Below, piece after piece: positions 574 through 62,398 of a stretch of 64,000 bases of DNA. Under the pieces are notes generated by a model that searched no databases, was not told the DNA's origin, and saw only the letters and a list, made by a program, of their open reading frames with translations. Each line of letters starts with the position of its first letter. The stretch's first letter is position 1. This stretch comes from Arthrobacter sp. StoSoilB20 (lineage in GTDB: Bacteria; Actinomycetota; Actinomycetes; Actinomycetales; Micrococcaceae), in NCBI RefSeq assembly GCF_019977295.1, contig NZ_AP024651.1, forward strand, positions 1,240,001 through 1,304,000, read 5' to 3'. The position numbers were made by a program, and so were the translations under genes.

Positions 574-587
574 CGAGTCTGCGGATG

Positions 588-6586: not shown

Positions 6587-6592
6587 GACCTC

Positions 6593-6622: not shown

Positions 6623-6652
6623 TGGATTTTGGGTCCTTGCCGCCGGGTGGGT

Positions 6653-7245: not shown

Positions 7246-7301
7246 TCTGTGTGATGTGCGTCGCACTGTTGTTCAGGGCGACGAAGGCCGAGTGAAGGAC
7301 A

Positions 7302-42057: not shown

Positions 42058-43440
42058 ATGAGTTCATCTGCAGCGGTTGCCAGCAGGGCGGGAGTTGGGG
42101 CGTCCAAGGCGACCCCTCGCGACCTCTTCATCACCGCCCTTGCCCCGATGGTTTGGGGCTCCACCTACCTGGTGACCACGGAGTTCCTCCCCGCCGACCG
42201 GCCGCTCCTGGCCGCAACCGTGAGGGCCCTGCCAGCTGGGATCGTGCTCATGGTGGTCACCCGGACGTGGCCGCGGGGGAGTTGGTGGTTCAAAGCCGCG
42301 GCGCTGGGTGCGCTCAACATCGGGCTGTTCTTCTTTTTGCTGTTCTTCACCGCGTACCAACTGCCGGGTGGGCTCGCAGCGCTGGTCATGTCCATCCAGC
42401 CTCTGTTTGTGCTTTTTCTTGGCGTGCTGTTGCTGGGGGAGAGGATCCGCATGGCTCACATCATTGCCTGCGGGGTGGGAGCCGCGGGTGTCGGCTTGCT
42501 CGTCCTTCGATCCGACGCGACGCTGACTCTTGTGGGTGTGCTTGCCGGGATGGCGGCGGCGCTGAGCATGGCGGCCGGCATAGTTCTCACCAAACGTTGG
42601 GGAAGGCCCGACGGCGTGGGGCTGCTCGGGTTCACTGGCCTGCAGTTAGCGATGGGTGGGGTGATGCTGCTGCCCGTGACGTTGGTGGTTGAAGGGCTGC
42701 CTGCGTCGGTTTCCGGACCCAACCTGGCGGGCTTCGCCTACCTCAGCGTCATCGGGGCACTGGCCGCATACGCAGTGTGGTTCCGGGGCATTGAGCGGTT
42801 GCCGACGATGGTGGTGTCGTTCCTGGGATTCCTGAGCCCGCTTGTGGCTACCGCGCTGGGGTTTGTGTTCCTGGGGGAGTCGTTGTCGGGGTGGCAGTTG
42901 GTCGGCGCGGCGTTGGTGCTGGGGGCTGTGGGTTTGGTGCAACGGCCTGGGGGGGGATGGGCGCCACCTACCGCCACGCGAAGCGGTTGTCTCCACGTGG
43001 GACAAGAACATCGACGAGGACCCGCAGAGGTGCAGATACACGGGTCTTTGTGCGAACGCAGGCCGGTGCACTCGTTGTCGCCAAAAAGCAGACTTAACAC
43101 GTGGCCACCTGCTCTGATGGTCCGTCGTCAGTTTCGTCTATGTCAGCGGTCCGGGCGGGACTCTGGCTCCGCTAGACCGCTCTCCTTAGATTCTCTGTCC
43201 GTCTGTAGCTCAATGATCGCAAGTGCAAGTTTCCCAATTGTTTCTTCATACTTATCGCTGGATGGGTCGATTCCTAGGGTACGGAGGGCTTCCCTGCGCC
43301 GTTGGCTCTCATCAAGAGCCCCTGCTAATGCATCTAATACGGAGACCATGATTGATTTCATTTTGCTGCCAGGGGCGTTCATGTTGTTGCTCCCGGATTA
43401 TTCTGGCGATTCTTTGCTTGCTGTAACTCAACCTTTGTAG
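42058..43440 (+). CDS. EamA/DMT-family transporter with aberrant 3' end
   Basis: Residues 1-300 form a normal ten-helix EamA (RhaT-like) exporter: two EamA repeats, MVWGSTYLVTTEFLPADRPL in helix 1 and LVGAALVLGAVGLVQRPGG at the end of helix 10. Normal members stop soon after that. Here the frame runs on for about 155 codons (from about 42960) through a run of eight G and then antisense to the gene at 43143-43382. That tail has no protein-like pattern. The natural end was probably lost by a frameshift or by insertion of the neighbouring island. The MarR protein next door likely controls it. Confidence 0.82.
   Translation: MSSSAAVASRAGVGASKATPRDLFITALAPMVWGSTYLVTTEFLPADRPLLAATVRALPAGIVLMVVTRTWPRGSWWFKAAALGALNIGLFFFLLFFTAYQLPGGLAALVMSIQPLFVLFLGVLLLGERIRMAHIIACGVGAAGVGLLVLRSDATLTLVGVLAGMAAALSMAAGIVLTKRWGRPDGVGLLGFTGLQLAMGGVMLLPVTLVVEGLPASVSGPNLAGFAYLSVIGALAAYAVWFRGIERLPTMVVSFLGFLSPLVATALGFVFLGESLSGWQLVGAALVLGAVGLVQRPGGGWAPPTATRSGCLHVGQEHRRGPAEVQIHGSLCERRPVHSLSPKSRLNTWPPALMVRRQFRLCQRSGRDSGSARPLSLDSLSVCSSMIASASFPIVSSYLSLDGSIPRVRRASLRRWLSSRAPANASNTETMIDFILLPGAFMLLLPDYSGDSLLAVTQPL
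43143..43382 (-). CDS. Small hypothetical protein, last gene of the island
   Basis: This is a 79-residue, highly charged, probably helical protein that begins MNAPGSKMKSIMVSVLDALA and later contains IGKLALAIIELQTDRESKES. It follows the membrane protein gene at 58 bases on the same strand. It has no recognised family. Its other strand is occupied by the meaningless extension of the EamA frame. Confidence 0.55.
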   Translation of the reverse strand: MNAPGSKMKSIMVSVLDALAGALDESQRRREALRTLGIDPSSDKYEETIGKLALAIIELQTDRESKESGLAEPESRPDR

Positions 43441-44784
43441 TCACGGTTTCACCGCGATCGCGGCGAAAACAGTCAGGGATCCGTCGCTGTCCCGTTCGAT
43501 TTCGATTGCTACATCAGCGTTTTGGCTCCCCGCGTAGGTGCCCTCGCCTAGATCCCGTAGGCGATAGGCTGCACTAAGTAGTTTGTCTACCTCACCAGAT
43601 GTGAATGCTGGCACTCGGAATCCGCGCGGGCGCCTCAGCTCAAGTTTTGACAACTGTTGAAGAATTGAACTTATGCGCGCCTCCAACTCGTCAACGCTTT
43701 TTTGGGTTTTGTTTAGTTTGCTGATGAAGCTCTTAAAGAGATTATTCGGATTCTTCTGGGCGTGATCGACCGCCTGAACGACAAGAACCCTGCGCTTGAG
43801 AGCAATCGCCAGCCGCGCGATTTCCAATTGCGCCCGGAATCGTCCGCGCTCTTCGTCGATGCCAGGAAAGGCTTTGGTCAGCTCCTCTAGATCGATTGGA
43901 CCGTCAACGCCATCAAGGGCAGCCTCCCAGTTTCGGAGCCGAGTTCGAACTGTGGTGAACGCCTCGTTGATGGCGTGTACCGCCGAATCGAGTCCGAGTG
44001 ACAGGCCGAGTTCGCCTTCATCGAGAAGGACCGACGTTGCGGCAGCGACGGCGTCACCGCATGCCTCTAACGAAGTATGTTCCTTGACGAGCTTTTCGTC
44101 GTTCAGCTGCTCTAAGAGGTCCGTTATTTTTTGGATGGCTTTTTGACGCTGATGATCTGCGTAAGCGCTGACGCCGACGGAAACGGCCATGAGCACCAGC
44201 GGTGCGGCAACGGTCAAGGTTCCGGCACTCGCGACGGCCACACCAGCAGTTGCGGCTGAGCCAGTTGCTGCCCCAGCAGCAGCTGTCGCTCCAGTGGCTA
44301 CAGCTGAAGTTGATGCCAGACCCGTAACTGGCACGAATGTGGCATTGGCTACAATGCCAGCGGAGTCGCGGAGTGCGCTGTATACACCTCCTGCAGCAGC
44401 CGTTGAGGCCATCGGTTTGACCAGCCCCTGGCCTAGCTGCGCAGCGACTTTTGCAGGGACTACCATGCGATAAAGTACGTCACCCGTTGCGGCAATATTG
44501 ACTGTCGGCGGTGCCGACTTAGCCGTATGCGCGGCGAGCTGCGTCAAGTGCTGTGCGAGCGGGCTGGCTGCGTTGAGTGCGATGCCGTTGGTGCGGGTTC
44601 GCATGGTAGATCGCGGATGAATTTCTAAGGTTGCGATGGAGGAATCTGCCAGAGCAGCGAGCACTGTACGCAGTTCTGTGAGCCGTGCCGAAGTGAGGGT
44701 CTCGTCGGCGAACAGTTGGGGCACGGTGACCGGCTCTGTAGCCAAGGTCCAAACTGGCACAAGTGCATTACCATCGGCTGTCAT
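43441..44784 (-). CDS. Ala/Gly-rich membrane and coiled-coil protein
   Basis: This is a 447-residue protein. Residues about 125-215 form a long hydrophobic Ala/Gly/Thr/Val stretch (for example ATGATAAAGAATGSAATAGV) like a glycine-zipper membrane segment or hairpin. Then comes a helical, coiled-coil-like region (about 215-400) and a small C-terminal beta part. No signal peptide is seen. It could be a membrane-acting effector or a scaffold for the DNA-processing proteins upstream; this is inference. It has its own upstream region of 212 bases with a perfect palindrome, so it may be regulated separately. No known family is claimed. Confidence 0.6.
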   Translation of the reverse strand: MTADGNALVPVWTLATEPVTVPQLFADETLTSARLTELRTVLAALADSSIATLEIHPRSTMRTRTNGIALNAASPLAQHLTQLAAHTAKSAPPTVNIAATGDVLYRMVVPAKVAAQLGQGLVKPMASTAAAGGVYSALRDSAGIVANATFVPVTGLASTSAVATGATAAAGAATGSAATAGVAVASAGTLTVAAPLVLMAVSVGVSAYADHQRQKAIQKITDLLEQLNDEKLVKEHTSLEACGDAVAAATSVLLDEGELGLSLGLDSAVHAINEAFTTVRTRLRNWEAALDGVDGPIDLEELTKAFPGIDEERGRFRAQLEIARLAIALKRRVLVVQAVDHAQKNPNNLFKSFISKLNKTQKSVDELEARISSILQQLSKLELRRPRGFRVPAFTSGEVDKLLSAAYRLRDLGEGTYAGSQNADVAIEIERDSDGSLTVFAAIAVKP

Positions 44785-44811
44785 TGTGAATGTCCTTGCT
44801 CAAAAGGTGGA

Positions 44812-44826
44812 AGTCTAAATTAGACT
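44812..44826. promoter_or_regulatory. Perfect 7-1-7 palindrome before the membrane protein gene
   Basis: AGTCTAA-A-TTAGACT lies 28 bases upstream of the start at 44784. It is AT-rich compared with the surroundings and could be an operator overlapping a promoter. The rest of the 212-base gap has a weak CGCTCC/GGAGCG hairpin at 44939-44958 and nothing else that I recognise. Confidence 0.5.
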
Positions 44827-44996
44827 ATTTCGGAATCGATGCAGCTGAGGCATGCTATCGCTTTTCAACCTAAATTGTATTTGCCTCGGCCCTTCAATGA
44901 TGTAGTGATGTGTGCTTAGAAGAGTCAGCGGAGGTTAACGCTCCCTCCAAGCGGAGCGAACGCAACAGCCAAGTATTTTGTACCGGATGTCCATCC

Positions 44997-45677
44997 TTAG
45001 CCAGCCTCTTGATGAACAGCCATACCTTGCGATTTGCCGAACATCCACAAGACGACATCCATGGTGCGAAGATCGGAGATGTCGTGGTCAATCGCTGCCC
45101 TCCTACGAATCATTCTTAGCCGCTCGGGTAGGCCGGAACCGTCGGTTAGAACAGAGTGCCAAGTCTCCCATTGGCCGTCGCAGGTCGGATGGCCCATGAG
45201 TGGTCCCACTACCGAGTCGAAGATTGGGATGAGCCGTGGGCGCTTTCTCGCCATGACCTTACTGGCGGTAGTGGGCCCAATTCCCCAACGATAGGAGTCA
45301 CTGCCACGCAGCAGACGCCACAGTTGATTCGCCGGACTCTGCGAGCCCAGGACTTCGGCATACTCGTCAGGGGCAACAGCGGAGAGATCCAAGTCTGTCG
45401 GTATCCGTTTGAGGAGCTCTGACACCTCACCGGCATGGGTTTCGATGAGTCCGATTGCAGCTCTCGCAGTCACCTGTACGGATAGAAACGAAACAGCGAG
45501 GACGTCGTCTGCAGTGATGATATGCGCGACTTCTCCTTTATCGCCCCCACCTGCCCAATCGTCGAATCGGCTTCCGGTCTGCGGGAGGTCGTTACGGTAA
45601 AGCTTCGTGTAGTACTCACCGACCAGTGCAGCGGCTTCATCGATTTTGCTTTGTGAGAGGATTTTCGGCAATGTCAT
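44997..45677 (-). CDS. DUF6308-like protein
   Basis: This is a 226-residue soluble protein. YRWGIGPTTASKVMARKRP followed by LIPIFDSVV is the most family-like motif; it resembles the helix-hairpin-helix region of DNA glycosylases, where it would contact DNA. The pattern recalls actinobacterial DUF6308 proteins. It lies 24 bases after the helicase-sigma gene and is probably cotranscribed. A DNA-binding accessory role is inferred. Confidence 0.62.
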   Translation of the reverse strand: MTLPKILSQSKIDEAAALVGEYYTKLYRNDLPQTGSRFDDWAGGGDKGEVAHIITADDVLAVSFLSVQVTARAAIGLIETHAGEVSELLKRIPTDLDLSAVAPDEYAEVLGSQSPANQLWRLLRGSDSYRWGIGPTTASKVMARKRPRLIPIFDSVVGPLMGHPTCDGQWETWHSVLTDGSGLPERLRMIRRRAAIDHDISDLRTMDVVLWMFGKSQGMAVHQEAG

Positions 45678-45701
45678 GTTTGCTCCTTTTGGTCTCCGCG
45701 G

Positions 45702-48221
45702 TCAGGCGGATGCGGAATCTTCGACTGGAGTTGTGACGCCGCCGTAGTAGTGTTCCCTGAGACGTCGACAGCGCTCAGGGTCTTTCAGGAGCACCAAAGT
45801 CTTGGCCTCAATCTGGCGGATTCGTTCTCGTGTAACGCCGTAAATTTGCCCTATGGCATCCAGCGTTTTCTGTTCACCGTCCGTAAGTCCGAAGCGCAGG
45901 GCGATCACTCCAGCCTCGCGCTCCGTCAGCGTATCCAGAACCGCATGAACCTCGGCCGTCAACTGCTCTGCGGCAATAACCTCATCAACGTCCAGCGGAT
46001 AAGGATCGATAAGCTGGTTAGCAAGGCTCTCCATCCCGCCTCTGCCGTCCGGTACTAGAAAGTCCAAGGAGAGAACTGACCTGGACGCGGTGAGAAGGTG
46101 CTCTACTTTTTCGACAGTGTTGTCCGAAAGCTTCGCAAGCTCCGTTACGTGATGTTTGATCCCGGCGCGGTCTGCTTCCCGAAGGATTCCCTGAATCTTG
46201 TTGACCTGCTCCACGATGTGGACCGGAAGCCTGATGAGGCGTGCCTGATCAGCCAAAGCCCGCGTAATTGCCTGGCGTATCCACCACGTGGCATAGGTAG
46301 AGAACTTGAAGCCAAGTGAGTAATCGAACTTACAGGCCGCACGATGCAGGCCGATGTTGCCTTCTTGTATGAGATCAAGGAAGTCCATGCCTTGTCCGGT
46401 GTGGCGCTTTGCTATGGAAACAACAAGACGGAGGTTGGCGCTGATGAGGGAGTGCATGGCGCTTTCCCCGAGCTGTGCGATTTGAGTTAGCTCGCGGGAG
46501 AGCTTCCTGCTGCGCCAAGCCGTATCGTCTAGTAAGTGCTGAGCGTAGAGACCGGCTTCGATCTCACGTGCGAGTTCAACCTCTTGCTGTGCTGTAAGCA
46601 AATCTGCTTGCGAGGCCCGCTTCAGGTAGTCCGCGACGCTGTCGGCGCTGTAGCCCGAGATGTCTCCGAGTCCTTCGAGCCAACCGTCATCCTGAAGATC
46701 GAACGCGGTGGGTGCATCTGATTCGGGCTCCTTGGGGACAGCGGGGACAGTTGATGCAGTTTCTGCCACAGAAGTCCGTGGCTCAAAAACTGCCTGGCCC
46801 TCGGAAGCAATAGGGGCCGATACTTGCACCTTTGGACGAAGGAAGTCCTTCAGTTGGTCAAGTTCGTGCTTGATATCGAAGAACTCCACGTGATCAGCAA
46901 AGGGCAGGACTTTCCCCAGGAACTCTTCGCCCTGAATGTCAGGGTCTTCCACGGTGCCCTTTGAATAGAGGACGACGAGGCGGCCGGCGCGATTATTTGC
47001 CTTCTTGCGGATGACGCGGCCGAGCCGCTGCACCATCTGACGTTGACTTCGGTTGGCGGCGACGATGATGCCAAGGTCTGCTTCCGGGACGTCTATACCT
47101 TCGTCGAGGAGCCTTGGTGCCGCAAGAATCTGGGAGGCCCCGCTTCGGAAATCGTCCATCCCTTGACGCCGGTCCTCCTTTGCCATTCCGCTGAACAGCG
47201 CAGAGGCCGTCGAGCCCAAGGCCGTATAGAGCTCTTGAGCGCGCTTCGCAGAATCCTGTGTCTGAGTGAACACGAGTGTGCCGTTTGAGGAGTCAACGAT
47301 CTCCTTAATGGCAGCGAGCGCATGATATTTGGTCTTTGCATCCGCCAGCAGGGTTAGCCTGGACGCCATGGCCCGCATGTACTTTCGCGACAGAGTTGCC
47401 TCGCGGCTCGGGGACTCCGACGCGGCCAATGAGGCGACCGCCGCAACGAACCTGTGAAATGGTCGGCGGGGGATACCGGCATACGATTCGAGATGTCTGG
47501 AGGTTTCAGACATCGTGTTTGAAAGGTCATCGTAGTTGACCTGTTCGCTTGGAGTCAGTTCCACACCGACAAGCGCGATATCGAAGGGGGCAATGACCTC
47601 GTCAGCCAGTGCGCGGTCGTACCAGAGGTTGTAGACGACCCCGCCAAAGTATGGAGTCAGTAGATTCTCGTGCTCGCCGTCAGCACGTTCGTAGGTTGCC
47701 GTCAGCCCAAGGCGCCACGCGTAGCCTTCCTGCAACGCTCCGGTAAACATAGGGGCGGCGTACCGGTGGCATTCATCGGCGATGATCAAACCGGCCTTGT
47801 GGCTACGCAGCGTCATTCGATTGGAAGCCGAATGAACGATGGCGACAAGGACATCAACGTCGTCCAAGGTGTCGGTTCGACCATCGCCAAGAGCGCCTCG
47901 TCGGGCGGCGGGGAGGTCACGCTTAAGGGAGGACAACCACTGGCGCTGAAGTTCAGCGGTGGGCACAAGAATCAGCACTTTGATGCCCTGCCGAATCGCC
48001 TCGAAAGCTGCGGCGATTCCTACTCGTGTCTTGCCGGCACCAGTGACGGCCTCAACAACGCCGCGGCGGGCGTTGGAGTGCCAGGCTTTGAGTGCCTCTT
48101 GCTGCCAGGCGTACAAGAAGGCGTAGTCATAGGATGTGGAAACTGAGACCTGGTCAGTGTGGAGACGCCTCTGAACCCGATCTGTCATTCCGTTCGACTC
48201 CGCGTCGACCAACTCCGGCAT
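45702..48221 (-). CDS. SF2 helicase fused to a complete sigma-70 factor
   Basis: This is an 839-residue hybrid. Residues about 25-460 form a DEAD/DEAH-type SF2 helicase of the XPB/UvrB-like group: Walker A TGAGKT (60-65), DECH (149-152), LTAT (173-176) and QRLGRVIRK (398-406). A linker follows, then sigma region 1.2 (about 524-559), region 2 (594-669, with FSTYATWWIRQAITRALADQ), region 3 (670-729) and region 4 (759-824, GVTRERIRQIEAKTLVLL). Region 2.4 is very close to that of primary sigma factors. ATG 48221 is chosen because GGGGGA precedes it; the frame is open to 48344 but overlaps the previous gene. It presumably couples DNA or RNA translocation to promoter use. Confidence 0.9.
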   Translation of the reverse strand: MPELVDAESNGMTDRVQRRLHTDQVSVSTSYDYAFLYAWQQEALKAWHSNARRGVVEAVTGAGKTRVGIAAAFEAIRQGIKVLILVPTAELQRQWLSSLKRDLPAARRGALGDGRTDTLDDVDVLVAIVHSASNRMTLRSHKAGLIIADECHRYAAPMFTGALQEGYAWRLGLTATYERADGEHENLLTPYFGGVVYNLWYDRALADEVIAPFDIALVGVELTPSEQVNYDDLSNTMSETSRHLESYAGIPRRPFHRFVAAVASLAASESPSREATLSRKYMRAMASRLTLLADAKTKYHALAAIKEIVDSSNGTLVFTQTQDSAKRAQELYTALGSTASALFSGMAKEDRRQGMDDFRSGASQILAAPRLLDEGIDVPEADLGIIVAANRSQRQMVQRLGRVIRKKANNRAGRLVVLYSKGTVEDPDIQGEEFLGKVLPFADHVEFFDIKHELDQLKDFLRPKVQVSAPIASEGQAVFEPRTSVAETASTVPAVPKEPESDAPTAFDLQDDGWLEGLGDISGYSADSVADYLKRASQADLLTAQQEVELAREIEAGLYAQHLLDDTAWRSRKLSRELTQIAQLGESAMHSLISANLRLVVSIAKRHTGQGMDFLDLIQEGNIGLHRAACKFDYSLGFKFSTYATWWIRQAITRALADQARLIRLPVHIVEQVNKIQGILREADRAGIKHHVTELAKLSDNTVEKVEHLLTASRSVLSLDFLVPDGRGGMESLANQLIDPYPLDVDEVIAAEQLTAEVHAVLDTLTEREAGVIALRFGLTDGEQKTLDAIGQIYGVTRERIRQIEAKTLVLLKDPERCRRLREHYYGGVTTPVEDSASA

Positions 48222-48297
48222 TTCATCCCCCATCGGACTGTGTGGTGCTTCCTTACTGAAGGCTAATGGAAGGCCCGGACAATATTGCTTGCGATGC

Positions 48298-49986
48298 TCA
48301 TCCGGGCACCGCCAGCGAGTAGTCCCAAGCCTCAGCGCGCGCAAGGGAGTGCTTCAGTTCCCGTCCGCCCGCTTCTTCCAGGAGCTCTGAATCACCCACG
48401 ACGACCAGCAAGCTCCGTGCCCGGGACAACCCGACGTAGAGCTGTTCGGCGGCTCGGGCCATGTCCTTAAAGCCGTTGACACAGAGTATGACGACGGATC
48501 TTTCAAGTCCCTTGAACCCCAAGACATGGCCATAAAACTCCGCATCACCCGCATGAAATTCGCGCCAGTATTCCTCGGTGGCACCACGGTCAAAGTAGTC
48601 CAGATGAACGGGGTGCCTTTCCTTGGTGGTCAGTAGGGCTATCTGGTTATTTGCCCACCCTTCATCAATTAGCGCTTCTACACAGTCCCCCGCGACGTCG
48701 AGGGCTTCGTCGGTGGAGCAGTGGACTCTACGAACGGGTAGTCCGGTGCTGCCTCGCGGCGTGAAATGCTCGCCGGCAAACGGTTTGAAGGTTTCCGCAA
48801 TTTTTCGGGTGTTCCGCAGATTCTCGTCGATGTGGATGGGGACAAAGGTTGCTGTAGGTCCTTGGTTGAGGTCGGCCGTGAGCCCGCCCCATCTTTTGTA
48901 AACGTCCTGGCGGTCGTCCATGAAGGCATAAACTTCGCCGTTCTCTGGGTCAGCAGTGCATGCCAGCAATGCTTCCCACCATAAAGGGGCGAAGTCCTGT
49001 GCTTCGTCAACGATCACCGCATCCAGTCGCTGGTGTGCGGGCATAGTGCCGGCCATTTCCCGGAGAAGCCGTGGCATCTCTACATCGAAGTAGTCCTGGC
49101 CCTTGCCATCAGGCACCCCAAGCTGGCGAACGTACTCGTGAAATTCGCCGGTGAAGATTGGTTTGGCTTGCCGCCACGACGAGACCCGGTCTTGCAGGTA
49201 TTGCCCTAATCCCTTGTTGTAACAAAAGAGACCGACGCGCTTACCTTGTTTACTCAACATTCGGGCTTTCTCGACAGCAAGCCACGTCTTCCCACTGCCC
49301 GCCCCACCGGTAAAGCGAACGCGGGTAAGGGAACGCGTTGCCTGGAGCAAGACTGCTTGGCGCTCAGTTAGATGGTCTTGGGTGTCCTCGTCTTCCCTTG
49401 GACTCACGGGGGCGCCGGTGCCGCCATCAAGTGACCCGGCAAGCTGTCGTTCGATACGTTCCATGAACGCGGTCGCCAGTGGTGAGGCACCGCCACCCTC
49501 TGTTTCTATGGCCCTCCGGACGAGTTCAGCCGGCGACTCGCATTGTCTGTCGTCCAGAACCAAAGTGCGGGGGCACCCAGCCATGCCCCACTCCTTTGGA
49601 ACGGAGGTGTAGGGGAACGCGACCATGTAGGCGAAGCGACTGGTCAGCGGTGTACCGAGCTGCCGCCCCAGCCAGTTCTTCAGGGCGTGGTGAGAACTTT
49701 GAGACTGCACTACCGGGCTCTGAATCTTGTGGCTTCCGCCCCTGTCGGACTGTAACCATTGACCATTTTCCACGGAGATTCGGCCACCTTTGACTTCGAT
49801 CGCCGCCATGCCCACCCCCGGCCAGAGGACCAAAATGTCGATCTCATGTTCTGCCCTGCCATCCCGCAGCTGAACGGAGTGGGCTAGCACAGCATCGTCC
49901 GGGAGGGTTCGATTGAGGGCTTCCCACACTGAACGTTCTGCACTCTGGCCCTCAGTGAAATGCGGTTCTTCGGGTATGAATCTCAT
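48298..49986 (-). CDS. NERD-domain UvrD-like helicase
   Basis: This is a 562-residue protein. The N-terminal NERD nuclease-related domain (about 10-120) keeps the acidic and Lys positions in EIDILVLWPG and AIEVKGG. An SF1 helicase core follows: Walker A GGAGSGKT (227-234), DEAQD (327-331), NLRNTRKIAE (389-398), VLGFKGLE (488-495) and YVGLSRAR (517-524). Such proteins recur in phage-defence contexts. The stop of the AddA-like gene is 4 bases before its ATG. Confidence 0.88.
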   Translation of the reverse strand: MRFIPEEPHFTEGQSAERSVWEALNRTLPDDAVLAHSVQLRDGRAEHEIDILVLWPGVGMAAIEVKGGRISVENGQWLQSDRGGSHKIQSPVVQSQSSHHALKNWLGRQLGTPLTSRFAYMVAFPYTSVPKEWGMAGCPRTLVLDDRQCESPAELVRRAIETEGGGASPLATAFMERIERQLAGSLDGGTGAPVSPREDEDTQDHLTERQAVLLQATRSLTRVRFTGGAGSGKTWLAVEKARMLSKQGKRVGLFCYNKGLGQYLQDRVSSWRQAKPIFTGEFHEYVRQLGVPDGKGQDYFDVEMPRLLREMAGTMPAHQRLDAVIVDEAQDFAPLWWEALLACTADPENGEVYAFMDDRQDVYKRWGGLTADLNQGPTATFVPIHIDENLRNTRKIAETFKPFAGEHFTPRGSTGLPVRRVHCSTDEALDVAGDCVEALIDEGWANNQIALLTTKERHPVHLDYFDRGATEEYWREFHAGDAEFYGHVLGFKGLERSVVILCVNGFKDMARAAEQLYVGLSRARSLLVVVGDSELLEEAGGRELKHSLARAEAWDYSLAVPG

Positions 49987-49990
49987 TTAC

Positions 49991-55833: not shown

Positions 55834-55917
55834 TTTGCTTGTTTGGTTGTTGTATCACGCTTTTGGATATCCGGCCCGGTTCGTCCACCTAGTGGGCTAA
55901 TTGTCCTGAGACGCGTG

Positions 55918-57372
55918 TCAATCGGCATCCGAACGGATCGTCTGCCAGTGAATCTCGCCAGGTGTACGTATTCCGAAACCCTCTCGGAGCACGACAAGAA
56001 TTTCATGGCCAGCGTTCATCGGATCTCCGAGGTTGTTTAACAAGTTGGATGTTGTGCAGTTCGATGCTCGCCAACCGCGAGGTCCCAAACTTGGTTCGTC
56101 GGATATTTGCTCGCCTGCGAAGCCCCAGGCTGGCCTGATTTCACATAGCACGTCGCCCTTGACGATGCTGGCTTGAGCACGTAGAGGTGGGCCTTCCAAG
56201 GTCTCTTTCCCGGATTCGATCATCAGGGTCCAACCTTCGGACAGGTCAGCCAAAGCCTCATTGAGCTCTTCTCCAACGGACGCCCACTTCTGCTCCAAGC
56301 GGTTTTCAGCACGGAATTGATTCGAGAGACTGCGCACCTCATCGTCATCGGTGAAATACGCAGCTGAGATGACTTCTTCCCACGTATTGAAATGTCTCCT
56401 CATCTCGATGGGAGAAGGTCGCTCACGTCCCGCCGCTGCTTCGTTGATGACCCAGGTGTCGTAGGTGGAAACGTCTTTAGGAAAGAACGGCGACTCGTGA
56501 TCCGAGCAGGCTTCCTTGAAGTCTTCAGCGGCTGCGTCGAAATCCGCGGCTTCAAACCTTGCTGCCGCCTCGTTCATGCTGAGGCCAACCGCGCGAAGAG
56601 TTTGTTCCCACGATCCTTTACCTACCCGGCGTCGAAGATTCCGGGCGGAATAGGGCCACATCGTGCTGAGTTCAGCAGGTGAGGCCAGTGCTTGCAGAGC
56701 GTCGCCGTAAGCCGTAATGGAAGGACCATTGACCTTGTCGGCTTGGACCTTAAGGGTAGTAGCTTCGACGATGGCCAGTATCTCAGCTACGCGGGCGCTG
56801 CTGAGGAATGAGCCCAGATTGTCCCGGATTTCTTGAATGTCGCCCGGAGCCATGTTGGCTAACGCGGCCTTGTAGTCGGGTTCAACCCGGAGATGCACGC
56901 CCGCTATGTACAGCAGGCTGAACCGGTCCAGAATAGCGATGGGCCTGGCTGGCGTTGTCCGCTCCGAGTTGTTCGCCAGCCAGCGCCGATTGCAGAGCAG
57001 TGCCACGGCGATTTCACTGTCGACGGGAGTGCCCAAAGCCTTAAGGACTTTAGGGATCTCGGAGTGGTGTATTCCAGCAGACAGAAGCTGCTGGATCGTA
57101 TTTCGCTGTTCAGCCAAGAGATCGGCCGTCTTCTGACTGCGCGCCATGAGTGACCGTGAACGTTCCAGTTCTCCGCGTTCGGCGATTCTGGGGCCCAGCT
57201 TTCGGAGCAGTTCATACCCACTGGCACTGGTCTCTTCAGCTATCGCGGACAGTGGTCTACCTGCCCGATACGCTGCGGCCGCCTTGGCCTCGGGAGTAGG
57301 ACCCATGCACCTTAAGGGGAGCCTCATGGCCTGCTCTGAGTACGCTCCGTCGACGTTCATCTCAGGTTTCAA
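55918..57372 (-). CDS. HEAR-repeat protein C (paralog with C-terminal chaperone-like domain)
   Basis: This is a 484-residue protein and the third of three paralogs. The N-terminus has a degenerate HTH (YRAGRPLSAIAEETSASG). Two repeats like the homing-endonuclease-associated type follow: SARNLRRRVGKGSWEQTLRA near 225 and STYDTWVINEAAAGRERPSP then HFNTWEEVI near 330. The last 130 residues align by eye with protein B (DAGHEIL, then LR.G and E.HWQT) and resemble a TY-Chap/T3SS-chaperone-like fold. Its ATG overlaps the stop of protein B. The function is unknown; DNA binding is likely. Confidence 0.72.
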   Translation of the reverse strand: MKPEMNVDGAYSEQAMRLPLRCMGPTPEAKAAAAYRAGRPLSAIAEETSASGYELLRKLGPRIAERGELERSRSLMARSQKTADLLAEQRNTIQQLLSAGIHHSEIPKVLKALGTPVDSEIAVALLCNRRWLANNSERTTPARPIAILDRFSLLYIAGVHLRVEPDYKAALANMAPGDIQEIRDNLGSFLSSARVAEILAIVEATTLKVQADKVNGPSITAYGDALQALASPAELSTMWPYSARNLRRRVGKGSWEQTLRAVGLSMNEAAARFEAADFDAAAEDFKEACSDHESPFFPKDVSTYDTWVINEAAAGRERPSPIEMRRHFNTWEEVISAAYFTDDDEVRSLSNQFRAENRLEQKWASVGEELNEALADLSEGWTLMIESGKETLEGPPLRAQASIVKGDVLCEIRPAWGFAGEQISDEPSLGPRGWRASNCTTSNLLNNLGDPMNAGHEILVVLREGFGIRTPGEIHWQTIRSDAD

Positions 57373-58892
57373 CTCGCGTTCCTCAGGGTTTGAACCGCAC
57401 CATTTAGCGCATCATCCAGGGTTACTCCTCCGTCAGGTCCGGGGCCCGGGGGGAACTCTCCTGTGGACCAGCGAAACTCCGTAACGTCAACACACTTTCT
57501 GCCGTATCTCAAGGCTGAGACAATCTGATGCCCGGCATCGCGTGGTGAGACCTGGGATTTCCACCAGTTGGGAAAATCGGCGTCCGGTTCCGACCAGTCG
57601 TTACTTGCCAAGAATTCCCGGTCGATTGGCCAATCTGTGGCAGGCAAGAACTCCTCCGAAACGACCTCGCACCAGACTCCGTCCGCGCTAGGTGTTGCTT
57701 GTGCATAGGGGTTGGCGCCGTTGGTTCTCGTCCCTGCATACTCCACTCTTAGGAAGCTGTTCCAAGGCATTTGTGCGAGTAGGTCGCTGATGAGAACTCC
57801 CGCCCGGTGCCAATCGTGGTCGATAGGCTCCCCATCGCCGTCGGCGTCTATTGCGTGCTCATCACGGAGCGCTCGCAGCAAGAACTTTGATTGAAGCGGT
57901 GTGGCTGACATTTCGGTCAGCTCACTGCCAAATACTTGATCAATGAGCTCGTCCCAAGAAACACCAAAGTGCCGCATGATTTCGTTCGCGGATGGTCGCT
58001 CGATCAGCATTCCCGCTTGCGAAAAGCCCCAGAGGTCGTAAGATTCTTCGCTCATTGCGTAGCCGCACAGTTCGCACTCATCGAGAAACGAGTCGAGGGC
58101 ATCTTGGTGTTCTTTCGTCCCGAATCGCCCCTCAGGTGTGCCCACGTTCAGTCGGATGGTGTCCAAAGCTCCCTGCCAACTGCCACCACCGTAGCGGCTG
58201 ACGAGGCTGGCTATAGGTACTGGCCACGGGTCCTTCTCGTCGCGGGAAACTCTTCCCAGTCGCCGCGAGATCTGTTGGGCCATTTCGTCGTACTCGGAGT
58301 AAGTGAGGGTAGCAATCGACTTGGCGTGTATGGCCAAGGCAGTGGTTTCAGCGACCGCCAGAATCTCTGCCAAGCGAGTGTAAGTAACCTCGGGCTTCAC
58401 GAGCTCCCGAAAGGCAGCGACGGCATCCAACGGCATCTTTGCAAGTGCAAGCTGGTAGTCGGGTTCAATGCCGTGATGCTTCCCGACGACGTAGAGCAGG
58501 CTCAACCTATCGCTCAGCAGTTTAGGAGCGGGCTCCGCGGGTGCTTCGTCAGGAATGCCAAGGAATTTCAGAATAGCTACGGCTACATCCACGTCAATGT
58601 CGTTCCCGAGCGCACCGATCACCTTCGGGGTGTCCAACAGTGGGATGCCGGCATCATCCAACCGGCTGACCATTTCCACGTTGTTCCAAAGAGCGCTCAT
58701 AGATTTGACCGCTCGGCTGCCCACCGACCGGGCTCGCGCAAGTTCGTCGCTGGGCTTATCAGCAATAGCATCGAAAATGTCGCCGGCATCGACACTGTGC
58801 GCTGACGTTATTGTTTCCAGCGGATCTCCGCGACGGTATGCTTCCCGAATCACCGCGGCACGTGTTTCGCTGTCCTTGTCGTCCCCCATCAT
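57369..58892 (-). CDS. HEAR-repeat protein B (paralog with C-terminal chaperone-like domain)
   Basis: This is a 507-residue paralog of proteins A and C. An N-terminal HTH-like segment (REAYRRGDPLETITSAHSVD) is followed by a helical middle (LSDRLSLLYVVGKHHGIEPD, conserved in C). Two HEAR-like repeats come next (SLVSRYGGGSWQGALDTIRL and ERPSANEIMRHFGVSWDELI). The C-terminal domain has CEVVSEEFLPATDWP and DADFPNWWKSQVSPRDAGHQ, close to the NWW and P-x-D-A pattern of TY-Chap domains. It lies 5 bases after protein A. Confidence 0.74.
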   Translation of the reverse strand: MMGDDKDSETRAAVIREAYRRGDPLETITSAHSVDAGDIFDAIADKPSDELARARSVGSRAVKSMSALWNNVEMVSRLDDAGIPLLDTPKVIGALGNDIDVDVAVAILKFLGIPDEAPAEPAPKLLSDRLSLLYVVGKHHGIEPDYQLALAKMPLDAVAAFRELVKPEVTYTRLAEILAVAETTALAIHAKSIATLTYSEYDEMAQQISRRLGRVSRDEKDPWPVPIASLVSRYGGGSWQGALDTIRLNVGTPEGRFGTKEHQDALDSFLDECELCGYAMSEESYDLWGFSQAGMLIERPSANEIMRHFGVSWDELIDQVFGSELTEMSATPLQSKFLLRALRDEHAIDADGDGEPIDHDWHRAGVLISDLLAQMPWNSFLRVEYAGTRTNGANPYAQATPSADGVWCEVVSEEFLPATDWPIDREFLASNDWSEPDADFPNWWKSQVSPRDAGHQIVSALRYGRKCVDVTEFRWSTGEFPPGPGPDGGVTLDDALNGAVQTLRNAS

Positions 58893-58897
58893 GATTT

Positions 58898-59905
58898 CTA
58901 CTCCTGGACTGCCCGCACAGCGTCAAGCCACGTGCCGTAGATGTTCCTGACTGCGGCACCTGAGGGCCGGGAATTGCCGGCATGAATCTCTTGCTTGACC
59001 CATGCGTCGTAACCTGCGAATGTCGGCTTGACTCCGCTGGACAGGGCGAATCTGTTGAAATTGCGCACGGCGTCTTCGTAGTCGGCCTGGGTGAACTTCA
59101 GGAGCCCTTTCGGCCGTCCTTTCGCAGCTGTTCCGATCCCCATTGCTTCGAGGCCCTCGTTCCACCCGCCGAAACGCTTGGTCACGGTCTGACGAGTAGG
59201 GGGCCACGGAAATGCTCCTTGGCGAGAGACGAGGCCCAGCGCCGGCACGAGTTCGTCGCGAAGATGCTCATATCGCTGTCCGGTGATACTGGTTTCGGGA
59301 TTCTCTTGGAGGTATTTTTGCGCAGCTCCGATAACTCCCAGAATGGTGGAGACATCCTCGACGTCGGCTTCGGCAGACTCCAAGGCGGCCCGGAGCTCGT
59401 TCATCAGAGACAGCTCGATATTGACAGCGGCCCATTGACGGTCCGGAGCAAGCCCAAGGTTGGACCCCAACAGGTACCAGACACCTGCCGCCACCGCTTC
59501 TTTAGAGAAGATGTCTTCCATCTGTGACTTGTCGAAAACGATCGACGACGTCCGCAGGGCATCCTCGGCAAGCTCAGCGTCCATCGCGGGAAATAGTGCC
59601 TTCAGTTTGTCGATCGCATCAGGCCTGGTAACTCCGCGCCGGGCCATTTGGCGAGCCAAGTCGCCGTACGCGGCCATGAAGGCGTTGCGGGCGGCCGTCG
59701 CTGCGGCTTCCTTTGAAGCAAGTCGGCTTTTGCGGGACTCTTCGGCGCTTGTGCCGCCTACTTTTGCGATGATCTGGCGGACGCGTTCGCGGGTGACGCC
59801 GAAGCTCTGGCCGATGGCATCAAGAGTCTCGCCGTCGGCATAGCGCTCCACCATTGCAGCGTCGCGTTCTTCCCGACTGAGTTCAGGAGTTGTGGTCATG
59901 GTCAT
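58898..59905 (-). CDS. HEAR-repeat protein A with sigma region 4-like HTH
   Basis: This is a 335-residue protein. Residues 20-48 form a sigma-70 region 4.2-like HTH (ERYADGETLDAIGQSFG, then VTRERVRQIIAKVGG), 18 of 22 residues identical to the matching part of the helicase-sigma fusion. A helical middle follows, then two HEAR-like repeats (TRQTVTKRFGGWNEGLEAMG and RPSGAAVRNIYGTWLDAVRA). It lacks the C-terminal domain of B and C. ATG 59905 (or 59899) is 7 (or 13) bases after the ADP-ribosylglycohydrolase stop, which links the two gene sets. No good Shine-Dalgarno sequence is seen. Confidence 0.78.
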   Translation of the reverse strand: MTMTTTPELSREERDAAMVERYADGETLDAIGQSFGVTRERVRQIIAKVGGTSAEESRKSRLASKEAAATAARNAFMAAYGDLARQMARRGVTRPDAIDKLKALFPAMDAELAEDALRTSSIVFDKSQMEDIFSKEAVAAGVWYLLGSNLGLAPDRQWAAVNIELSLMNELRAALESAEADVEDVSTILGVIGAAQKYLQENPETSITGQRYEHLRDELVPALGLVSRQGAFPWPPTRQTVTKRFGGWNEGLEAMGIGTAAKGRPKGLLKFTQADYEDAVRNFNRFALSSGVKPTFAGYDAWVKQEIHAGNSRPSGAAVRNIYGTWLDAVRAVQE

Positions 59906-59912
59906 ATACCTA

Positions 59913-61451
59913 TCAGGCGGTTCGGACATTATGAGGAAGGCCGTTGCGAGCCGAGGGACTGTGACGGCCCGTGGCAGAGCGGCCGGACCGTACGATGTCC
60001 AGGAACAGGGGATTCGGCGAGGCGTTCGGCAGCACCTGCCGGACGTCTGCCAGCGCTGCTTCAGCATCAATCCCCAGTAATGCAGCACCGTACAAAGCGG
60101 CAACAGTCGGGGTCCTGGACTCAGCGCGCACGCAGTGGAGCAGCACCGTCTTCCCTTCAGAACGGAACTGCTCGATGGCGGCAGCCGCTTCAGCGAGGAC
60201 AAACGCCGCGTCAGCATTGTCGGATGGGTCCGGCGAATCGATAATCCAGAACGATGCATGATCTGACACCGCAATAGTGGACAGATCAGAGGTACCCAGG
60301 CGGCACAGGGAAACAACTGCGTCGATCCCCAAAACTTCCATCCGCCCCAGGGAACCGGCGCCACCCAACCACACGCCGTCGTCGTGAGGGTGCTGTACCA
60401 GCACATCGGTGCGACTCCACATGCTGTAGTCCTGATGCGCCGCGCCCGGCCAGGACTGTTCCCGTGAGCCTTCTCCACGGGCGAGCTCCATTCCTAGTGT
60501 CATGAGGTCGCGGGTTCGTAGTCCGGGCCACCCATGCAAATGCCGTCGCCACTCGAAGGGCACCGAAGTGAAGCCGTAAGCCGCGCCCAGAAGTCCTCCG
60601 GCAATCGTCGCGACAGTATCGGTATCGCCGCCTCCCCGGACGGCTTCTTCCAGAGCCTGGCGGAGGTGTTCCGGCCCACGGGTTGCAGACACTGTGGAGT
60701 GAATGGCGCTCCAAGCACCTTGGAACGCTTCCACTACCCACCCGTTCCGGTGAAAGTCCCGTGCACGTGACTGTTCGGCGGACTCGATGCGCGATAGCCA
60801 AACTGCGCTGCGGTCAGGGGGCAGCAGTGCCAGCCCCGCCCGCACGTTCAGCTTCCCGGTCAGGACCGCCTCCCTTATGGCAACGCACCAGAGACCGCAT
60901 GCCTCCAAGGCGTCGGGATCCACGTGAGTCAGCGCGCTCACCCTGGCTGCCGCCGCCATCAGCTCACCAGGCTCGCGATCGAGATAGGCGAGGGCAAGGG
61001 GAGCGGTGCGCATGAGTGAACCATTTCCGGCGCTGCGGCCGATGCGTCCGTGGAACGCTTCGGCGGCAGCTGTGAAGTCCGAGGCGGTCACCGGCCTCCC
61101 CGCGGAAGTTGCTGCACGGGTAGCGGCGGCAATGACCGCGTTGGTCTGGGCGCCGACATCTTTGGCGTCGGCAGCCCAGGCACTCCACTCGCGTACAACT
61201 CTGCTCAGCGCCGCGTCAGAGGCAAGTTCAGGTCCAGACCAAACAAGCGCTCTTGCCACGGGAATGGCCATGGACGTGTCATCGGTCCATTCGGCGGGAT
61301 CGAAGCCGAAGGGTCCGCCGCCTTTCATCAATACCGGCGTTTCGTCTGGCAGCGGCGGGCCGAACTCGTAAGCGGCGCCGAGGGCGTCTCCGGCCGCAAG
61401 CGACACGAGGACGCCTGCCGCACGATCGTTCTGCAGGGGACTAAGTTTCAT
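59913..61451 (-). CDS. ADP-ribosylglycohydrolase fused to a dual-specificity-type phosphatase
   Basis: This is a 512-residue fusion. Residues about 5-325 form a DraG/ARH-type hydrolase, with GDALGAAYEF, EWTDDTSMAI (metal-binding Thr-Asp-Asp) and GGDTDTVATIAGGLLGAAYG (second metal site). Residues about 340-490 form a phosphatase of the DSP/rhodanese-like class with HCVRAESRT (Cys nucleophile and Arg). It would remove ADP-ribose and act on a phosphorylated product. ATG 61451 overlaps the ARPP stop (ATGA) and has GGAG upstream. The combination is known from predicted NAD-ADP-ribose operons. Confidence 0.9.
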   Translation of the reverse strand: MKLSPLQNDRAAGVLVSLAAGDALGAAYEFGPPLPDETPVLMKGGGPFGFDPAEWTDDTSMAIPVARALVWSGPELASDAALSRVVREWSAWAADAKDVGAQTNAVIAAATRAATSAGRPVTASDFTAAAEAFHGRIGRSAGNGSLMRTAPLALAYLDREPGELMAAAARVSALTHVDPDALEACGLWCVAIREAVLTGKLNVRAGLALLPPDRSAVWLSRIESAEQSRARDFHRNGWVVEAFQGAWSAIHSTVSATRGPEHLRQALEEAVRGGGDTDTVATIAGGLLGAAYGFTSVPFEWRRHLHGWPGLRTRDLMTLGMELARGEGSREQSWPGAAHQDYSMWSRTDVLVQHPHDDGVWLGGAGSLGRMEVLGIDAVVSLCRLGTSDLSTIAVSDHASFWIIDSPDPSDNADAAFVLAEAAAAIEQFRSEGKTVLLHCVRAESRTPTVAALYGAALLGIDAEAALADVRQVLPNASPNPLFLDIVRSGRSATGRHSPSARNGLPHNVRTA

Positions 61452-62398
61452 GCGATCTCCATCAGGGTGTGTTTGGTGTTCCAAACGGTCAGGTGCGCCA
61501 GCTCTGGACTGCGGTTTGGAAGTTCGACGGCGATACCGGCACCTTCCAGCCCGGCCCGGAGTGAGCTGACTGGACGGCTACGGAGGGGTCCTTGGCTTCG
61601 AACGCCGGTAAGTGGGCCGCCGTCGAACGCTCCAAAATCCAGCCCTTGGACAACCGCAGCGAAGTCCCTGGCCTGTTGCCCTGACATCCGGCTGGATGCC
61701 ATGACCTTGGCCGGAAGCAGCTCGAGGTCCAGCAGGGCCGCGCCTATGAGCTGGTGGTAGTGGCGTCGGAACATCGTGTGGGTGCCGAAAATCTCCAACA
61801 CCAGCGGCTGCGTGCCAATCCCGAACAGGACTCCGCGCTGGCCGTCGATTGGGGGTGGAACGTCATCCAGGTCGAAGCTCGGGGCCAAGGTCTGGCGGTC
61901 AAGGTGGTCGACGAGTGAGCTGGTGGCTGAAACGCCACGCGCGGCGTCCAAGCGGCGCACTCTTTCCCAGATGCGGCTTTGACGGTTGCTTGAGTCCGAG
62001 GCCCCGGCGCGGGATGCCAGCTCTGCCCGGACGTTGAGGGGAGCGCGGCGACTCTGTCGCCGATGACTGCTCATGCCGGCTTCCCAGCGCCCTTCCTCAA
62101 CACAGTAGGTCCCGATGGTTCGGGTCTCGCCTGCACCAAGGATGACGTCGCCGGCGCAGGTTCTGTGTTGCTTCCCGCCTTCCAGGAGTTCGCCTTCGAG
62201 GAGGAGTGCGGGACGGGGACCGTTGTTGCTGACAATCAGCTTGCCTACCTGGGCGCCGTCAGGCAGTTCGTTGACGGCGACGTTGGCGTGTGCACCGGTG
62301 CTGATGGCCAAGTCACCATGGCCTGAGGTCCAGATCGGGAAGATGCTGAGTGGGCCCACAGCGGTGCCAACGCCCAGATGCAGTTGTGGGACTTGCAT
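61448..62398 (-). CDS. ARPP-1-like protein
   Basis: This is a 316-residue protein. LGVGTAVGPLSIFPIW at the start, VSNNGPRPALLLEGELLEGG and GAGETRTIGTYCVEEGRW match the ARPP-1 family, named for its association with ADP-ribosylglycohydrolases and rhodanese/phosphatase proteins. The fold is probably beta-rich, and the biochemical activity is not established. AGGAGG lies 6 bases before the ATG. It heads the long minus-strand gene train and is divergent from NrtR, with an AATTAGC/GCTAATT palindrome in its promoter region. Confidence 0.83.
   Translation of the reverse strand: MQVPQLHLGVGTAVGPLSIFPIWTSGHGDLAISTGAHANVAVNELPDGAQVGKLIVSNNGPRPALLLEGELLEGGKQHRTCAGDVILGAGETRTIGTYCVEEGRWEAGMSSHRRQSRRAPLNVRAELASRAGASDSSNRQSRIWERVRRLDAARGVSATSSLVDHLDRQTLAPSFDLDDVPPPIDGQRGVLFGIGTQPLVLEIFGTHTMFRRHYHQLIGAALLDLELLPAKVMASSRMSGQQARDFAAVVQGLDFGAFDGGPLTGVRSQGPLRSRPVSSLRAGLEGAGIAVELPNRSPELAHLTVWNTKHTLMEIA

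What the first reader, a model, noticed from the sequence alone, without database searches (positions are those of the whole stretch)
43143..62398. A 19-kb gene train joining ADP-ribose metabolism to DNA-end processing and a helicase-sigma hybrid
Twelve minus-strand genes run from an ARPP-1-like gene to a small protein. From 62398 to 44997 no gap exceeds about 90 bases and four junctions overlap by 4 bases. The order is ARPP-1, ARH-phosphatase, three HEAR/HTH paralogs, AddB-like, AddA-like, NERD-UvrD, SF2 helicase-sigma70 and DUF6308-like, then two more genes after 212 bases. The domains are those of known families; the combination is new to me. I infer an NAD/ADP-ribose-responsive system that recognises and degrades DNA and reprograms transcription, perhaps against phage.
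Basis: partly seen in the sequence, partly recalled or inferred. Interest (0 to 1): 0.95.

Follow-up and report, generated by a model that had tools for sequence, protein, structure and literature searches.

The report
ADP-ribose-switched sigma-helicase DNA-nuclease cassette
In soil bacteria of the Arthrobacter group one gene cluster joins enzymes predicted to strip ADP-ribose from cell molecules to predicted DNA-unwinding nucleases and to a helicase fused to a sigma factor (the promoter-reading part of RNA polymerase), behind a likely ADP-ribose-sensing switch; its parts are swapped and lost between strains, so it is probably a phage-defence unit.

Summary
The gene train is real. They are the only sites with up to 2 mismatches in the 4.78-Mb genome; the spacing is kept in the 8 closest loci, and is lost or changed in more distant ones. 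The order NrtR<>ARPP-1, ARG-phosphatase, variable genes, NERD-UvrD, helicase-sigma recurs in Arthrobacter/Pseudarthrobacter. Two distantly related AddAB-type pairs replace each other there, and one relative is a decayed relic at the site of other copies. In 13 Micrococcaceae genomes with ARPP-1, NERD-UvrD lies within about 20 kb in 9, an AddAB pair within about 23 kb in 7, helicase-sigma in 3. The sigma part keeps SigA-like -10- and -35-reading segments; the helicase is XPB-like. The ADP-ribose core is a published prediction (Iyer et al. 2022) whose main text has no hit for AddA, RecB, UvrD, NERD or sigma. Against: NERD-UvrD and AddAB also occur alone, and outside the family the link is almost absent. 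Verdict: new variant of a known kind, probably defence; ADP-ribose induction and every biochemical step are inferred.

The parts
62494..63165 (+). NrtR-type regulator: Nudix-like sensor + NrtR winged helix; GTG start proposed at 62494 (ORF from ATG 62449)
   Evidence: Pfam NUDIX and NrtR_WHD; best solved match 3gz5/3gz6 over residues 35-233, E 9.6e-23; in-frame GTG just behind palindrome O1
62466..62485 (.). palindrome O1 (predicted operator) overlapping the predicted -35 hexamer and lying just before the proposed NrtR start
62446..62474 (-). predicted promoter: TTGCGC, 17 nt, CATACT (CATACT identical in 8 of 8 aligned loci; TTGCGC in 7 of 8)
   Evidence: not among the consensus hits
62418..62437 (.). 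palindrome O2 (predicted operator) just downstream of the predicted -10 hexamer, 48 bp from O1
61448..62398 (-). ARPP-1
   Evidence: PF20208, 182 bits
59913..61451 (-). ADP-ribosylglycohydrolase fused to dual-specificity-type phosphatase (ARG-DSP)
   Evidence: PF03747, PF00782; TDDT, DTDT and HCx5R residues identical in the 6 sequences aligned
58898..59905 (-). P3: SigA-region-4.2-like helix-turn-helix + helical body + HEAR
   Evidence: Pfam; 118 hits; model pLDDT 83, pTM 0.44; no fold match better than E 1, but the HTH part aligns with solved sigma-A region 4 (7kug_D, 54% over 41 columns, prob 0.97, E 3.5)
57369..58892 (-). P4: P3-like helical/HEAR body + TY-Chap3 domain
   Evidence: PF22552; model pLDDT 78, pTM 0.60
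55918..57372 (-). P5: paralog of P4
   Evidence: 27% identity to P4, E 2e-41; TY-Chap3 25.1 bits, below cut-off
53179..55833 (-). AddB-like RecB-family nuclease with four AddB-type cysteines
   Evidence: PF12705; D/D-x-K residues in 7 of 7 sequences aligned; CRFCELGVLC motif and a further upstream Cys
49991..53182 (-). AddA-like UvrD helicase + RecB-family nuclease
   Evidence: PF00580, PF13361, PF12705; active-site residues in 7 of 7 sequences aligned
48298..49986 (-). NERD nuclease + UvrD-type helicase
   Evidence: PF08378; D..ExK and Walker residues in 7 of 7 sequences aligned
45702..48221 (-). XPB-like SF2 helicase fused to SigA-like sigma factor (HELSIG; 839 aa from ATG 48221; residue numbers are 11 higher)
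   Evidence: solved-structure matches HrdB/SigA and XPB; motif conservation
44997..45677 (-). DUF6308 protein, accessory; relatives also near the ADP-ribose core or its ARG in three other genomes
   Evidence: PF19827; (G429 57%, G547 48%, G261 32%)
43441..44784 (-). 447-aa protein after a 212-base gap; probably a neighbour, not core
   Evidence: relatives also near the core in G436 and G455
43143..43382 (-). 79-aa ORF, unassigned

Best explanation
A patchily distributed gene cassette that exchanges modules joins genes of ADP-ribose-handling families to AddAB-type and NERD nuclease-helicases and to an XPB-like helicase fused to a SigA-like sigma factor; it is likely switched on when ADP-ribose relieves repression by its own NrtR-type regulator, and would then undo ADP-ribosylation of host molecules while sending helicase-nucleases onto invading DNA. 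Shown: gene content, intact catalytic motifs, the double palindrome that is unique in the genome, linkage in several genera, module swapping, decay, and the nearby restriction genes. Inferred: (1) NrtR sits on O1 and O2 over the -35 and start region and keeps the train off. (2) Infection raises ADP-ribose, through phage ADP-ribosyltransferases plus basal ARG activity or through NAD breakdown, and NrtR lets go. (3) ARG, phosphatase and ARPP-1 remove and process ADP-ribose, with the TY-Chap3 proteins holding modified proteins. (4) HELSIG and P3, both with SigA-like -35-reading heads, mark active promoters, and the XPB-like motor plus NERD-UvrD and AddAB open and degrade that DNA. Step 4 is the least certain.
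For: Regulator: Nudix + NrtR winged helix, best solved match the Nudix protein 3gz5/3gz6 (recalled as the ADP-ribose-responsive Shewanella NrtR). Two palindromes with 48-bp spacing in the 8 loci aligned, bracketing a conserved -35/-10; the only sites with up to 2 mismatches in the genome. Linkage: of 197 Micrococcaceae genomes 13 have ARPP-1; in these a NrtR relative is found in 13 (30% identity in G261), an ARG-DSP relative in 13 (in G413 only the ARG part matched), NERD-UvrD in 9 (G454's 20 kb away) and an AddAB pair in 7 (G514's 22 kb from ARPP-1). Genome-level co-occurrence NERD/ARPP-1 p = 3.7e-8, not corrected for relatedness. Swapping: AddBA type 1 or type 2 in the slot behind HELSIG. 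Decay: relic in G155 with the right flank of L008 and L009. Defence setting: MmeI-type restriction enzyme and PLD-Snf2 helicase nearby, DpdE-like SNF2 inside one cassette, a GmrSD-type gene and type I restriction genes around HELSIG-AddBA in G382. Sigma part: -10 segment 58-84% and -35 helix 65-87% identical over 13 homologs where region 3 has 8-57% and the helicase 40-86%.
Against: No experiment. AddBA type 1 is unlinked to core or NERD in 9 of 15 genomes, and NERD-UvrD has no ARG, ARPP-1, AddBA or HELSIG beside it in 13 of the 28 loci examined, so these can be general genes that were recruited. Outside the family, 0 of 17 full-length ARG-DSP loci have AddAB and 1 of 17 a NERD relative (37%). 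HELSIG is in 3 of 13 ARPP-1 genomes, and 4 of 7 HELSIG genomes of the family lack ARPP-1. The palindrome pair is weaker, single or differently spaced in the more distant loci L042-L048. High conservation of regions 2 and 4 is usual for any sigma factor. ADP-ribose binding by this NrtR was not tested. No close relative of NERD-UvrD, HELSIG or P3 was found in the phage collections searched, so direct contact with phages is not shown.
Confidence: 0.55

Rival explanations
1. A DNA-repair cassette rather than immunity: the genes would answer ADP-ribosylated or otherwise damaged DNA (for instance from toxins of competing soil bacteria); ARG removes ADP-ribose and AddAB, NERD and the helicase mend the ends.
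For: AddAB-type enzymes and XPB-like helicases are repair enzymes in known pathways (recalled); a second pair of PDDEXK_1 proteins with AddA-like segments lies elsewhere in the genome, so this would be an extra, inducible set. AddBA type 1 sits without the cassette, among shared neighbour genes, in several genomes.
Against: Patchy presence (HELSIG in 7 of 197 genomes, ARPP-1 in 13 of 197), module swapping, decay and restriction neighbours look like conflict genes. No DarT relative in this genome. TY-Chap3 domains, predicted peptide-binding chaperones, point to protein rather than DNA substrates.
Confidence: 0.2
2. Two independent units side by side: a published ADP-ribose counter-defence core and an unrelated nuclease-helicase island that merely share a locus.
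For: NERD-UvrD, AddBA and HELSIG each occur without the core; outside the family the core lacks them.
Against: 84 bases is the largest gap over 17 kb; core + NERD-UvrD recurs in six ARPP-1 genomes of other genera at 63-70% NERD identity with different internal order. No further palindrome in the window; promoter-like sites inside are at chance level, 4 against a shuffled mean of 4.8, though internal promoters are not excluded.
Confidence: 0.2
3. HELSIG is an ordinary alternative sigma factor that drives cassette or stress genes, with the helicase only helping promoter opening.
For: SigA-like regions 2 and 4; XPB is the promoter-opening motor of eukaryotic TFIIH (recalled).
Against: HELSIG homologs lie in unrelated settings, including two plasmid backbones. 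I made no search for promoters shared by these loci, so this rival was hardly tested.
Confidence: 0.05

Closest known systems
ARG-centric ADP-ribose conflict systems (Iyer, Burroughs, Aravind and colleagues 2022, PMC9503650; section 3.8 read in full)
   Same: ARG + rhodanese-phosphatase-superfamily phosphatase, ARPP, Nudix repressor, TY-Chap3, no coupled ADP-ribosyltransferase; the paper also predicts accessory restriction-fold nucleases and helicases
   Different: Here the nuclease arm is AddAB-type + NERD-UvrD + helicase-sigma + HEAR/region-4 proteins; the main text has 0 hits for AddA, RecB, UvrD, NERD, sigma and HEAR (figures and supplements not seen)
MZA anti-phage system, MzaA sigma factor
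   Same: A SigA-like sigma domain inside a defence system called validated in PMC9523054 (one passage)
   Different: Only the sigma part matches (307.9 of the required 800 bits); no other Mza component is among the matches listed for the ten train proteins (some lists cut at 25)
PbeABCD, PbeA helicase
   Same: The helicase half of HELSIG is its best PADLOC match (2e-60)
   Different: Only the helicase part matches; no other Pbe component is among the matches listed
AddAB / AdnAB recombination nucleases
   Same: Fused helicase-nuclease subunit plus nuclease subunit with AddB-type cysteines
   Different: Far below the curated addA cut-off (169.6 of 707.65 bits); a second pair lies elsewhere in the genome, which I take for the housekeeping (AdnAB-type) pair from recall
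NrtR-family regulators of NAD metabolism
   Same: Nudix-like sensor + winged helix; best solved match 3gz5/3gz6
   Different: Palindromes only at this cassette, none with up to 2 mismatches elsewhere in the genome

Membership tests
ARG-centric ADP-ribose conflict system | ARG domain with intact active site, coupled to an R-P phosphatase | tested here: met
   (DSPc 32.1 bits, cut-off 33.5; HCx5R intact)
ARG-centric ADP-ribose conflict system | Nudix or WYL one-component regulator | tested here: met
ARG-centric ADP-ribose conflict system | ARPP and/or TY-type chaperone | tested here: met
   PF20208 and PF22552
ARG-centric ADP-ribose conflict system | no coupled ADP-ribosyltransferase | tested here: met
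   none among the Pfam matches of the ten train genes, the 447-aa gene and the flanking genes scanned (the 79-aa ORF was not scanned); DarT absent from the genome
ARG-centric ADP-ribose conflict system | protects against phage ADP-ribosylation | not testable with these tools
   a prediction in section 3.8 of the paper; no experiment here
NrtR regulator | Nudix-like domain + NrtR winged helix | tested here: met
NrtR regulator | binds ADP-ribose and releases its operator | not testable with these tools
   inferred from the family; the Nudix box reads REKVG where a catalytic box has REUxEE (motif recalled; sequence)
AddAB | AddA helicase and nuclease motifs; AddB nuclease with Fe-S cysteines | tested here: met
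   (CxxCx5C in 4 of 4 type 1 AddB; absent in the G382 homolog and in 2 of 2 type 2 AddB)
AddAB | curated AddA equivalog score | tested here: not met
   169.6 of 707.65 bits
AddAB | Chi recognition and recombination loading | not testable with these tools
   -
MZA | full-length MzaA score | tested here: not met
   307.9 of 800 bits, sigma part only
Gabija | GajA + GajB pair | tested here: inconclusive
   UvrD-type similarity of AddA to GajB models; no GajA among the matches shown, but the lists for two proteins were cut at 25
primary/group-2 sigma factor | regions 1.2, 2, 3, 4 | tested here: met
   Pfam; region 3 only 18.8 bits, cut-off 25.3
primary sigma factor | curated primary-sigma score | tested here: not met
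   360.6 of 582 bits

The most novel reading that the evidence does not exclude
HELSIG is a promoter-guided DNA-attack factor: a SigA-like head that finds active promoters joined to an XPB-type DNA motor, so that, once ADP-ribose reports an infection, transcription start sites of the invader become the entry points for NERD and AddAB nucleases. It would be a sigma-70-type subunit that carries its own ATP-driven motor, a kind I know of nowhere else.
Probability: 0.15. Interest if true: 0.92.

Novelty: new variant of a known kind. Interest (0 to 1): 0.72.

Why it matters
It ties a predicted class of ADP-ribose counter-defence systems to a concrete DNA-directed arm and to a private regulator with a palindrome pair, so the published hypothesis (ADP-ribose release switches the operon on) becomes directly testable with one operator fragment and one ligand. 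The helicase-sigma fusion (helicase plus sigma region 2 in 116 of the 120 best-listed protein clusters) has no description that my searches found and raises the question why a defence-type helicase should read host-like promoters.

Tried and rejected
Rejected: that the 447-aa gene is a cassette effector (1605 hits across actinobacteria). That the cassette is phage-borne: no NERD-UvrD match and no confirmed HELSIG relative in the viral-contig scans, which reach close relatives only, no P3 in phage records; 34 phage records match HELSIG but none over 80% of it, and the six rows shown cover only the sigma part, at most 38%. ARG alone has distant viral relatives (26-33% on 32 viral contigs). That NrtR controls NAD genes through the same palindrome: no other site with up to 2 mismatches; the ten sites with 3 mismatches (four for the control pattern) were not followed up. 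That a tRNA marks the insertion site: the only tRNAs called in 20 loci (L008, L084) are not at a cassette edge. Whole-fold match for P3: none better than E 1 in solved structures. Fold searches with the P4 model were not run.

Literature searches. Seen: PMC9503650 section 3.8 in full plus passages; PMC9523054, PMC7302621 and PMC11535050 passages only; all other papers search listings only.


Full report
WHAT IS THERE. The window is G000:C1:1240001-1304000 of a 4.78-Mb genome close to Paenarthrobacter/Arthrobacter (L010, Paenarthrobacter sp. CM16: 99.6-100% identical train proteins at its contig end). Pfam confirms ARPP-1, ARG + DSPc, Sigma70_r4 + HEAR, AddB-like and AddA-like PDDEXK_1 proteins, NERD-UvrD, ResIII/Helicase_C + sigma-70 regions, and DUF6308. 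P4 and P5 are P3 paralogs (23-24% identity to P3, 27% to each other) that end in a TY-Chap3 domain; AlphaFold models show an all-helical body in P3 and P4 and an extra alpha-beta domain in P4 (pTM 0.44 and 0.60, so domain placement is uncertain).

THE SWITCH. Divergent from ARPP-1 lies a Nudix + NrtR_WHD protein. Its best solved match is 3gz5/3gz6 (E 9.6e-23), which I recall as the ADP-ribose-responsive NrtR of Shewanella. Two palindromes, 62418-62437 and 62466-62485, lie 48 bp apart. In the 8 loci I aligned (window, L005, L006, L007, L011, L012, L039, L040) the spacing and a CATACT hexamer are the same, and a TTGCGC hexamer 17 nt upstream is kept in 7 of 8. The scoring matrix was built from ten sites, nine of the O2 type and the window's O1; the O1 copies in the other seven loci were not used to build it and score 19.8-28.4. 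In the window no other site scores 11 or more; five mononucleotide shuffles gave 0.2 sites of 13 or more per 64 kb. Over the whole genome these are the only two with up to 2 mismatches; ten more have 3 mismatches, against four hits for the reversed control pattern. In the more distant loci the pair is not intact: one site in L042, L044 and L047 (L047's strong, 27.8), two sites 44 or 45 bp apart in L043 and L048, and only weak hits in L045 and L046.

CONSERVATION. Eight cassettes with HELSIG were examined: the window and L005, L006, L007, L008, L009, L011, L012; L010 is a contig end of the window's own kind and L013 only a sigma match, both left out. ARG-DSP, and NERD-UvrD directly before HELSIG, are in 8 of 8. 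NrtR is in the 6 whose stretch reaches it; L008 and L009 are cut inside ARG-DSP. AddBA type 1 is in 5, type 2 in 2, and L009 keeps only a 199-residue start of AddB2 and the end of AddA2. The window differs in having AddBA before NERD and DUF6308 after HELSIG. Between ARG-DSP and NERD the content varies: P3, one or two TY-Chap3 proteins, an RNase H-like gene, a DpdE-like SNF2 helicase, a gene with a weak AAA match, and unknowns. L005 lacks an inner part of ARG-DSP, L011 keeps 45 residues of P3, and L009 has a frame break in HELSIG.

Among 197 Micrococcaceae genomes, ARPP-1 is in 13, HELSIG's helicase in 7, NERD-UvrD in 33 and AddB type 1 in 15. HELSIG and ARPP-1 coincide in 3. In the 13 ARPP-1 genomes the fetched stretches hold a NrtR relative in 13 (30% in G261), an ARG-DSP relative in 13 (in G413 only the ARG part), NERD-UvrD in 9 (G454's is 20 kb away) and an AddAB pair in 7 (type 1 in G000, G005, G455 and G514, the last 22 kb from ARPP-1; type 2 in G183, G544 and G472). 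Fisher tests at genome level: NERD/ARPP-1 3.7e-8, AddB1/ARPP-1 1.1e-3, AddB1/NERD 9e-5, HELSIG/ARPP-1 6.8e-3; they ignore shared ancestry and overstate independence.

RESULTS AGAINST. I looked at 28 of the 33 NERD genomes: 12 have ARG or ARPP-1 in the same locus (G454 at 20 kb and the G155 relic included), 2 have AddBA type 2 alone, 1 has HELSIG alone (13 kb away), and 13 have no ARG, ARPP-1, AddBA or HELSIG within about 9 kb each side or to the contig end (4-kb contig in G429; G251 has AddBA 13 kb away; a few show weaker hits to other cassette proteins); five NERD genomes with 40-45% identity were not fetched. Of 15 AddB type 1 genomes 5 are linked to the core, G251 lies about 13 kb from NERD, and 9 are unlinked. 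Outside the family I fetched the 17 loci with full-length ARG-DSP among the 57 hit genomes of 297 searched in the order (the 57 include family members): NrtR is nearby in 9 of 17, a NERD relative (37%) in 1, AddAB in 0. So NrtR + ARG-DSP is the widespread core, the DNA-end genes look like a Micrococcaceae addition, and HELSIG is the rarest and probably latest addition.

MOBILITY AND SETTING. L008, L009 and the relic L067 (G155: ARG pieces, broken NERD-UvrD, AddA tail) share 3.2-5.0 kb of right flank at 89-91% identity, whereas the window's flanks match none of the three. Right of the window's cassette are a 416-aa unknown, an HNH protein, an MmeI-type IIG restriction enzyme and a PLD-Snf2 helicase. 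HELSIG relatives also lie on plasmids pACHL01 and pYJN5-1 with similar neighbour genes and, in G382, opposite a GmrSD-type gene with AddBA (28 and 35% identity), next to type I restriction genes.

THE HELICASE-SIGMA PROTEIN. The sigma half matches HrdB/SigA structures (best E 7.8e-90) and the helicase half XPB (best E 1.7e-37). Against this genome's own SigA-like factor (54% identical) the -10-reading stretch and the region 4.2 helix are nearly identical and the long N-terminal part of that factor has no clear counterpart. Across 13 homologs, regions 2.2-2.4 keep 58-84% and the region 4.2 helix 65-87% identity, the helicase 40-86%, region 3 8-57% and the linker 11-34%. Walker A, DE(C/A)H and QRLGR motifs are present in 14 of 14 sequences. 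P3 carries a similar helix-turn-helix, and its E40, R41 and R43 are invariant in 17 of 17 sequences aligned, the window's and 16 chosen from 118 hits. That two proteins of one operon keep a -35-reading head is the basis for step 4 of the proposed mechanism; it is inference.

MECHANISM AND LITERATURE. Iyer et al. 2022 (PMC9503650, section 3.8) predict that ARG-centric operons with a Nudix repressor are switched on by ADP-ribose or nucleosides during attack by phage ADP-ribosyltransferases; chaperones hold modified proteins and nucleases act as a second line. This cassette fits the parts of that template that I could test. Some Microbacterium phages carry VIP2-type ADP-ribosyltransferases fused to a capsid protein (PMC7302621, passages), so the presumed trigger exists in phages of a related host. 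NrtR of Pseudomonas is described as binding ADP-ribose from NAD breakdown (PMC11535050, passages), so NAD-consuming defence could be the trigger instead. I found no description of the AddAB/NERD/helicase-sigma arm; the library lacks most subscription journals, and figures and supplements of the 2022 paper were not seen.

Noticed in passing
L083 (G000:C1:1303000-1318000), 195-9142: Right neighbours of the cassette: 416-aa unknown, HNH_2 + HTH protein, MmeI-type IIG restriction-modification enzyme and a PLD-Snf2 helicase, i.e. a defence island
   Followed up: partly
L028 17935-20907 (pACHL01) and L029 17935-20904 (pYJN5-1): 53-54%-identical helicase-sigma genes on large Pseudarthrobacter/Paenarthrobacter plasmids with similar neighbours (dnaE, single-strand-binding protein), without the cassette
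   Followed up: partly
L009 1045-4614: A DpdE-like SNF2 helicase (PADLOC 9.7e-215) sits inside the Soil736 cassette, where P3 stands in others
   Followed up: no
L007 13770-19942 vs window 49991-55833: Two distantly related AddAB-type pairs serve in different strains, behind helicase-sigma in most; the type 2 AddB lacks the CxxCx5C motif
   Followed up: partly
L067 8289-12963 (G155): Decayed cassette relic at the site that holds cassettes in L008 and L009; a stand-alone SigA-like gene lies just upstream
   Followed up: partly
L020 1222-19022 (G382): GmrSD_N protein + AddB + AddA divergent from a helicase-sigma gene, followed by type I restriction genes: a possible second kind of helicase-sigma/AddAB unit
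   Followed up: no
L104-L135: Distant ARG homologs (26-33%) on 32 viral contigs
   Followed up: no
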